Positions 35,479 to 36,451 of a stretch of DNA of 36,451 nt are shown one piece after another. The DNA is from Flavobacteriales bacterium. Lineage in GTDB: Bacteria > Bacteroidota > Bacteroidia > Flavobacteriales_D > Sanyastnellaceae. Position 1 is the stretch's first letter; the number at the start of each line of letters is the position of its first letter. The position numbers and the translations under genes are program-made. Below the pieces are notes generated by a model. The model made no database searches. It had not been told where the DNA came from and was given only the letters and a program-made list of their open reading frames with translations. The stretch covers positions 1 through 36,451 of the forward strand of contig JAQWQB010000029.1 of the NCBI GenBank assembly GCA_029245065.1, written 5' to 3'.

Positions 35479-36451
35479 TTACTTGATCACAAGGTGTTGC
35501 GTTAAACGCTCTCCGTTTGCTTCAAAAGAAAGAAGGTACATGCCCGCTTCGTAAACAGCAGCATCGAAGAAATACTTTGATTCTCCTTGAGGGAACACTC
35601 CTTGCTGAATTACTTCTACTTCTCTTCCTGTTACATCAATTAACCTCAGCGTTCCTTGAGATGCTTGATTCAAGTCCAAAGGAACACATGTAATTGCTCC
35701 GGCTGGGTTTGGGAACGCAGGCTGAAATTCACCCAAAGCTGTTTCACCCACCGACACAAAGGCCCCTACTCTGAAAGACCAATATCCTTCTGGAGCTGGC
35801 ATAGGACGGTTCTGAACTTTTCCATCTGCAGCTACACCTTCTACGTAGTAGTATACACGCGTGTCAGCTGCTTGAGCAGGAATGTCTGCAGTCCAGATGC
35901 CTTCTCCTGAATCAGACATGGATACGGAAACGTAATCAGCTCCGAGATCCGTTTTCCAGAACATAGTAGCTTCTACAACACCCAATCGGTGGCTCATGTA
36001 AGCGTCTACTGTGTAAGGGTTTTCAGTGTCTTCTGTATCTGGTAATGCTTGGTGTGAGATCAACAGCGGATCATCTGCTCCTACTTCATGGGTAATGCAG
36101 TGAAGTGCACCTGACAGCGAAATAATGTTGTTTGGAGACGAATCACAATCGATTCCCACGATGGTATATCCTGGTAATGCTTCTTCATAAATACGAAGTG
36201 CAGTTGTATCATACTCGGTGTAGTACGTTGGTACCAAAAGGGTGTTGTTCACAAACAACGAATTCGTGTACGTCAAGTACCAGCCGTTTTGATCAGGATA
36301 GTTCCCGTTCGTTTGTGGAGGCGAAGGAATACGAATCACCTTAAATGGAGTTCCCCATTTTGAAGTGTAATTGCTCAACACGTACTCCAAGTTTGCTTCA
36401 ATTTGAGGTCCGTCGGCAACGCCTTCAGGGTACTCAGCCATTAAAATCGTT
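35479..36451 (-). CDS. secreted arginine/agmatine deiminase-family protein with T9SS sorting domain (5' end outside window)
   Basis: C-terminal part of a PAD_porph-family (guanidino-group hydrolase) protein, the family of agmatine deiminase and P. gingivalis peptidylarginine deiminase. The frame is open to the window edge; at least 323 residues are visible. Counting from the Met at 36441, the catalytic domain continues to about residue 135 with YTNSLFVNNTLLVPTYY, YEEALPGYTIVGIDCD and the nucleophile Cys115 in SGALHCITHE. An Ig-like module follows (about 150-227). The end (about 243-320), PNPAGAITCVPLDL to LTQHLVIK, is a type A T9SS sorting domain, so export across the outer membrane is expected. 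Whether it acts on agmatine, free arginine or protein arginine is undecided. The missing N-terminus should hold the signal peptide and the other catalytic residues. Confidence 0.88.
   Translation of the reverse strand, partial: TILMAEYPEGVADGPQIEANLEYVLSNYTSKWGTPFKVIRIPSPPQTNGNYPDQNGWYLTYTNSLFVNNTLLVPTYYTEYDTTALRIYEEALPGYTIVGIDCDSSPNNIISLSGALHCITHEVGADDPLLISHQALPDTEDTENPYTVDAYMSHRLGVVEATMFWKTDLGADYVSVSMSDSGEGIWTADIPAQAADTRVYYYVEGVAADGKVQNRPMPAPEGYWSFRVGAFVSVGETALGEFQPAFPNPAGAITCVPLDLNQASQGTLRLIDVTGREVEVIQQGVFPQGESKYFFDAAVYEAGMYLLSFEANGERLTQHLVIK

What the first reader, a model, noticed from the sequence alone, without database searches (positions are those of the whole stretch)
35479..36451. 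Guanidino-hydrolase (PPAD/agmatine deiminase family) fused to an Ig-like module and a T9SS sorting domain
The sequence shows a PAD_porph-type active-site segment (SGALHCITHE), a beta-sandwich module and a type A T9SS tail in one chain. P. gingivalis PPAD is the well-known T9SS-exported protein-arginine deiminase. A similar architecture in an apparently free-living flavobacterial genome suggests an extracellular citrullinating or arginine-scavenging enzyme outside the oral niche. The role is inferred.
Basis: partly seen in the sequence, partly recalled or inferred. Interest (0 to 1): 0.6.

Follow-up and report, generated by a model that had tools for sequence, protein, structure and literature searches.

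The report
Secreted PPAD-like arginine deiminase, gene fragment
The window ends in the second half of a gene for an exported enzyme that probably turns arginine into citrulline, similar in design to the gum-disease enzyme PPAD, and such genes turn out to be common in environmental relatives of this bacterium.

Summary
In detail: 35479-36450 (minus strand) is an open 323-aa C-terminal fragment, cut by the contig end, with the last third of a PAD_porph domain (catalytic Cys and Asn), an Ig-like domain and a type A T9SS tail. The missing half was judged from relatives. In 90 aligned window-family proteins all five PPAD catalytic residues and both carboxylate-binding arginines (R152, R154) are invariant; 0 of 21 agmatine-deiminase-type sequences have either arginine. 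The family profile scores PPAD at 211 bits, agmatine-deiminase types at most 94. An Ig-only profile finds PPAD and no other PDB chain significantly. Tyr233, Cys239 and Asp347 of PPAD are replaced in 90 of 90. Best reading: a T9SS-exported arginine deiminase for substrates with a free carboxylate, meaning C-terminal or possibly free arginine. Activity is untested. It is not rare: 47 of 60 relatives carry PF04371. Deep tree order is favoured, not proven. The contig that continues the locus overlaps with a different sequence: tandem copies or a strain mixture.

The parts
35479..36450 (-). open reading frame fragment, 323 codons plus stop; 5' end cut by the contig end
36085..36393 (-). C-terminal third of the PAD_porph catalytic domain (profile positions 223-319 of 321)
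36262..36264 (-). codon of the Asn equivalent to PPAD Asn297 (YTNS)
   Evidence: position counted by hand; equivalence from the alignment
36097..36099 (-). codon of the catalytic Cys equivalent to PPAD Cys351 (SGALHCITHE)
   Evidence: position counted by hand; equivalence from the alignment
35758..36072 (-). Ig-like domain, homologous to the PPAD IgSF domain
   Evidence: for the orthologue L039
35482..35715 (-). type A T9SS sorting domain (TIGR04183)

Best explanation
The gene encodes a PPAD-like guanidino hydrolase. Inferred route: a Sec signal peptide takes it to the periplasm, the T9SS carries it across the outer membrane and the C-terminal tail is removed by PorU. Inferred chemistry, by PPAD's published mechanism: two aspartates grip the guanidinium of arginine, the cysteine attacks the guanidino carbon, ammonia leaves and citrulline forms, while two arginines hold the substrate's alpha-carboxylate. 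The substrate is therefore an arginine with a free carboxylate: the C-terminal arginine of peptides, or possibly free arginine, because the tyrosine that helps PPAD bind the peptide main chain is missing. Shown by sequence: family, domains, conserved residues in relatives, T9SS genes in the genome. Not shown: activity, substrate, cell location.
For: Residues: W127, D130, R152, R154, G182, I234, H236, D238, N297 and C351 of PPAD are invariant in 90 of 90 aligned window-family sequences; 0 of 21 agmatine-deiminase-type sequences have Arg at 152 or 154. Roles of these residues: PMC4487231 sections 5 and 6 and PMC4893104 part 2 of 4. Profile of 35 orthologues: PPAD 211 bits over both domains, best other PDB chain 94 bits. 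Structure model of L039 (pLDDT 84.8): PPAD first by Foldseek; by VIA-align Z 40.1-41.0 over 411-416 residues including the Ig domain, agmatine-deiminase-type chains Z 33.4-37.2 over 300-327 residues, essentially the catalytic domain. Ig-only profile: PPAD E 9e-7, next PDB chain 0.077. Same genome: the C82 gene has all five catalytic residues and both arginines; the C104 fragment has D130, R152, R154, H236 and D238; both have a signal-peptide-like start. T9SS genes: SprA, PorU and PorU2, tails.
Against: The window holds two of the five catalytic residues, so the active site of this copy is unseen. PPAD Tyr233 is Tyr in 0 of 90 (Gly in 66), Cys239 is Met in 90 of 90 (PPAD Cys239 mutants to Ala or Ser kept about 8% activity) and Asp347 is Gly in 90 of 90, so specificity or rate may differ; a Tyr (65) or Phe (24) lies two residues before position 233 in 89 of 90 and might stand in. 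No gingipain was found: the two C25 peptidases are PorU and PorU2. AU tests do not reject trees that group PPAD's side, or the window family, with agmatine-deiminase types (p 0.39 and 0.31). Only 24 of 35 orthologues match the T9SS tail model at E <= 0.001.
Confidence: 0.7

Rival explanations
1. An exported free L-arginine deiminase: the two arginines bind the carboxylate of free arginine, and peptides are poor substrates.
For: The PPAD structure paper describes main-chain contacts by Tyr233 and Arg154 and links peptide selectivity to them (PMC4487231 section 5); Tyr233 is absent in 90 of 90 family members. No Arg-specific C25 protease was found to make C-terminal arginines.
Against: Arg154, which binds the preceding peptide carbonyl in PPAD, is invariant. 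The nearest protein of known activity is the peptidyl enzyme PPAD. Arg-cleaving proteases of other families were not searched for.
Confidence: 0.2
2. An exported agmatine deiminase, the activity that NCBIfam names suggest.
For: 35 of 35 orthologues match agmatine deiminase models at E <= 0.001; same catalytic fold.
Against: The printed scores are 25 bits (window), 44-45 (L039), 46-48 (C82) and at most 67 (L084), against cut-offs of 382 and 483. R152 and R154 are in 90 of 90 family members and 0 of 21 agmatine-type sequences, where T180 is Glu in 21 of 21. Agmatine has no carboxylate for the arginines to bind.
Confidence: 0.06
3. The window piece is a broken or artefactual half gene, for instance from a strain mixture at the contig end.
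For: It ends at the contig edge; the contig that continues the synteny (C104) ends in a non-identical version of the same 45-aa stretch (about three quarters identical).
Against: The frame is open to the contig end; the two contigs have, between them, the two flanks of an intact single gene in relatives, L040 being the fullest case; contamination is given as 0.69%. Tandem copies explain it as well.
Confidence: 0.04

Closest known systems
Porphyromonas gingivalis peptidylarginine deiminase (PPAD; PDB 4yt9, 4ytg, 5ak7, 6i0x)
   Same: catalytic domain, homologous Ig domain, T9SS tail; five catalytic residues plus W127, R152, R154, I234 and G182 in relatives
   Different: L039 and the C82 protein are 28% and 30% identical to it in the catalytic domain; no Tyr233, Cys239 to Met, Asp347 to Gly; no gingipain partner seen
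Agmatine deiminase AguA (TIGR03380; solved agmatine-deiminase-type chains 1xkn, 6b10, 2jer, 3h7c)
   Same: PAD_porph fold and catalytic Cys, His, Asp and Asn
   Different: no Ig domain aligned, no R152/R154, Glu in place of T180; the family scores far below the NCBIfam cut-offs
pPAD-type genes reported as 'more widespread than previously thought' (PMC8826395) and centipede venom PADs derived from bacterial ones, one from Bacteroidetes (PMC7864903); passages only
   Same: homologues of PPAD outside Porphyromonas, already in print
   Different: the passages that I saw do not describe a T9SS-tailed Flavobacteriales family with R152/R154; their supplements could not be read here

Membership tests
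PPAD (secreted Porphyromonas peptidylarginine deiminase) | catalytic Asp130, His236, Asp238, Asn297, Cys351 | tested here: met
   90 of 90 aligned family sequences; in the window itself only Asn297 and Cys351 can be seen
PPAD (secreted Porphyromonas peptidylarginine deiminase) | Arg152 and Arg154 binding the C-terminal carboxylate | tested here: met
   90 of 90 in relatives, and in C82 and C104 of the same genome; not in the window's half
PPAD (secreted Porphyromonas peptidylarginine deiminase) | Tyr233 contact to carboxylate and amide | tested here: not met
   Tyr in 0 of 90; Gly in 66 of 90
PPAD (secreted Porphyromonas peptidylarginine deiminase) | Cys239 channel gatekeeper | tested here: not met
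   Met in 90 of 90
PPAD (secreted Porphyromonas peptidylarginine deiminase) | homologous Ig domain after the catalytic domain | tested here: met
   Ig-only profile finds PPAD, E 9e-7 in the PDB; fold alignment of model residues 47-506
PPAD (secreted Porphyromonas peptidylarginine deiminase) | C-terminal T9SS sorting domain | tested here: met
   window 32 bits, cut-off 23; 24 of 35 orthologues at E <= 0.001
PPAD (secreted Porphyromonas peptidylarginine deiminase) | citrullinates C-terminal arginine | not testable with these tools
   needs an enzyme assay
PPAD (secreted Porphyromonas peptidylarginine deiminase) | one clade with PPAD apart from agmatine deiminases | tested here: inconclusive
   SH-aLRT 100 in the quick tree, but AU tests, p 0.39 and 0.31, do not reject alternatives
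agmatine deiminase (TIGR03380, NF010070) | score above the curated cut-off | tested here: not met
   25 bits in the window fragment and 44-45 bits in L039 against 382 and 483
T9SS type A cargo | type A sorting domain, and T9SS machinery in the genome | tested here: met
T9SS type A cargo | Sec signal peptide | tested here: inconclusive
   the window lacks the 5' end; a simple home-made rule is met by C104, C82 and 57 of 68 relatives from the genome searches, and by 0 of 5 cytosolic controls and 4 of 20 agmatine-type sequences

The most novel reading that the evidence does not exclude
PPAD is not a Porphyromonas invention but one branch of an old, widespread class of T9SS-exported two-domain deiminases for C-terminal arginine. 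Extracellular citrullination would then be a common trait of environmental Bacteroidota, and PPAD's catalytic-plus-Ig architecture would predate its pathogenic use instead of arising by late fusion of an agmatine deiminase with gingipain-like domains.
Probability: 0.45. Interest if true: 0.7.

Novelty: new variant of a known kind. Interest (0 to 1): 0.45.

Why it matters
PPAD is called the only known prokaryotic peptidylarginine deiminase in two 2015 papers (PMC4585897, PMC4487231; passages) and is discussed as a link between gum disease and rheumatoid arthritis. An environmental family that shares its carboxylate-binding arginines and its Ig domain gives non-pathogenic enzymes on which the origin and specificity of PPAD can be tested, and puts in question how unique bacterial citrullination is. 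A 2021 paper already says that pPAD genes are more widespread than thought (PMC8826395, passage), so the wide spread as such is not new.

Tried and rejected
Agmatine deiminase as identity: rejected on scores and on R152/R154. Arginine recovery through citrulline: disfavoured, no argininosuccinate synthase match in the genome and 0 of 60 relatives over the cut-off (15 of 60 had weak hits of 20-25 bits below it). Ornithine carbamoyltransferase: the one PF00185 hit is PyrB. Gingipain partner: both C25 hits are PorU and PorU2; proteases of other families were not searched for. Arginase-family matches exist (3) and were not followed. A lax signal-peptide rule gave 77 of 78 in the family, with 12 of 90 left out, but also 8 of 21 agmatine-type and 9 of 22 window ORFs, so it was set aside; the stricter rule is quoted. 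Under that rule only 22 of the 35 members of A1 passed, partly because some starts in A1 were set inside the gene. RgpB is not among the PDB matches of the Ig-only profile up to E 10; that does not exclude a shared fold, which the PPAD paper describes. Literature searches: in their listings I saw no paper on this T9SS-tailed family in Flavobacteriales; the library lacks most subscription papers, lists are cut, and supplements could not be read. Papers: PMC4893104 part 2 of 4; PMC4487231 sections 5 and 6 and passages; PMC8826395, PMC7864903, PMC4585897, PMC7847538, PMC10202324 and PMC10394638 passages only; all others listing and abstract starts only.

Full report
What is in the window. The window is the whole contig G000:C132 of a 3.19 Mb, 143-contig genome (98.35% complete, 0.69% contamination). 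Its last 972 bases on the minus strand are an open frame of 323 codons with a stop at 35479-35481 and no end before the contig edge. It holds the last third of PAD_porph (E 5e-18), with the Asn (YTNS) and Cys (SGALHC) that align with Asn297 and Cys351 of PPAD, an Ig-like stretch, and a type A T9SS tail (32 bits, cut-off 23).

The missing half. The same genome has two more PAD_porph genes: C82 (918-codon frame, complete catalytic domain) and C104 (N-terminal half, cut at the contig start). In the relative L040 the intact gene lies between genes like those beside the C104 fragment and genes like those beside the window fragment; L039 shows the same with fewer of the right-hand genes. Of the 40 named loci, 16 to 22 hold relatives of each of seven window-side genes. 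I call these Bax-inhibitor-like, FolE, QueD, epimerase, MerR, M23 peptidase and AlaS by recognition; no family search was run on them. So the two contigs meet in this locus. But the 45 aa that both fragments cover differ (about three quarters identical), so they are not two ends of one sequence. Tandem copies with a lost middle, or two strains in one bin, remain open. The fragments are about equally close to L039 (70% and 72%).

Relatives. A scan of genome contigs with the fragment gave 40 loci encoding a relative, most titled Flavobacteriales and most covering the whole fragment. PF04371 is found in 47 of 60 relatives. The best place of six of these 47 (L004-L008, L011) is agmatine-type, and each of the six has a further place of 595-652 codons; not all places were read. 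In an even sample of the phylum, 124 of 395 genomes match L040's protein at E <= 1e-15; 21, the own genome included, do so at E <= 1e-90 (my count from the table), and most of the rest are about 30% identical and short, like agmatine deiminases, though few were read.

Residues. From the fetched loci I took 149 frames, 136 after removing identical or contained ones, dropped 12 fragments or stray hits and added PPAD. I sorted the 125 by lists of loci set by hand, guided by a tree of 59 representatives: 90 window family, 6 on PPAD's side, 7 in a deeper T9SS-tailed group, 21 agmatine-deiminase type, and PPAD. Trp127, Asp130, Arg152, Arg154, Gly182, Ile234, His236, Asp238, Asn297 and Cys351 are the same in 90 of 90 window-family sequences. 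All ten have published roles in PPAD: guanidinium grip, nucleophile, acid/base, cavity wall and floor, and salt bridges from Arg152 and Arg154 to the C-terminal carboxylate (PMC4487231; PMC4893104). None of the 21 agmatine types has Arg at 152 or 154. Against a plain equation with PPAD: position 233 is Tyr in 0 of 90 and Gly in 66, 239 is Met in 90 of 90 and 347 is Gly in 90 of 90. A Tyr (65) or Phe (24) two residues before 233 in 89 of 90 might take part of Tyr233's place. Some members have one extra residue between the two arginines (for instance NRPTRP), so the register there is the aligner's choice. The family was gathered by similarity, so these are related samples, not independent ones.

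Architecture. A profile of 35 orthologues scores PPAD at 211 bits over both domains and the best agmatine-deiminase-type chain at 94. A profile of the Ig stretch alone finds only PPAD chains significantly in the PDB (E 9e-7, next 0.077). Among the fetched frames it finds the same domain in all 7 of the deeper T9SS group and in 5 of 6 on PPAD's side, L102 weakly (E 0.0002) and the short L103 not at all. A model of L039 (pLDDT 84.8, pTM 0.76) has PPAD first by Foldseek (E 1.6e-36) and by VIA-align (Z 41.0, rmsd 3.2, 414 residues); agmatine-deiminase-type chains follow at Z 33.4-37.2 over 300-327 residues. The shared Ig domain speaks against the proposal in PMC4487231 (passage) that PPAD arose by fusing a single-domain agmatine enzyme to gingipain-like domains, unless that fusion is far older than Porphyromonas.

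Tree. In a quick tree of 59 representatives the 15 agmatine types are split from the 44 others with SH-aLRT 100. PPAD joins L100 (99), these join L107 and L122 (96), and that group joins the window family (94; the window family itself has 86). AU tests do not reject PPAD's side with agmatine types (p 0.39) nor the window family with agmatine types (p 0.31). The common origin of PPAD and this family therefore rests on the Ig domain and the arginines more than on the tree.

Export and physiology. The genome has SprA in two pieces, PorU and PorU2 and 135 T9SS tail matches at E <= 0.01, 128 of them over the cut-off, with 150 of 160 candidates scored. No argininosuccinate synthase was found in the genome, nor one over the cut-off in any of 60 relatives, while 14 of 14 control genomes have it; the single carbamoyltransferase match is PyrB. 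The product citrulline thus has no evident way back to arginine, so the gain may be ammonia, altered peptides, or something outside the cell. This is inference. All three PF04371 matches of the genome are window-family sequences, so no cytoplasmic agmatine deiminase was found; the C82 one has no tail that the models recognise.

Verdict. A T9SS-exported PPAD-like deiminase, common in this order, with PPAD's carboxylate-binding pair and Ig domain but without its Tyr233 and Cys239. It is a variant of a known kind. Its interest lies in what it says about PPAD's origin and about citrullination outside the mouth; both need an enzyme assay.

Noticed in passing
G000:C82 (L033:7671-10424 +): A longer paralogue (918-codon frame) has, after the Ig region, Cys-rich repeats of the form CNYDxxAxxDDGSC and a C-terminus that looks dockerin-like by eye; only PAD/agmatine deiminase models matched it at E <= 0.05 (NCBIfam) or 0.1 (Pfam). 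Long forms of about 920 codons that align with it over 865 residues are in L024 and L027.
   Followed up: partly
G000 and 60 relatives: Argininosuccinate synthase is absent from the genome and over the cut-off in 0 of 60 relatives, including the 13 without PAD_porph, which suggests arginine auxotrophy in the whole group.
   Followed up: partly
window 35479-36451 and G000:C104:1-1051: Two contig ends meet in the same locus with non-identical copies of one gene stretch: a tandem duplication or a strain mixture.
   Followed up: partly
L041 and L068: Records titled Chryseobacterium gleum and Candidatus Competibacteraceae hold members of this family; L041 also has flanks like those of the C104 contig. 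The titles may be wrong or the bins mixed.
   Followed up: no
G000:C62 and G000:C138: SprA is split over two contig ends (profile 458-2318 and 3-478).
   Followed up: no
L100-L103 (G161, G180, G169, G081): Sequences 41-44% identical to PPAD in the catalytic domain, with Asp347 but Ala at 233 and Thr at 239; closer to PPAD than the window family is.
   Followed up: partly
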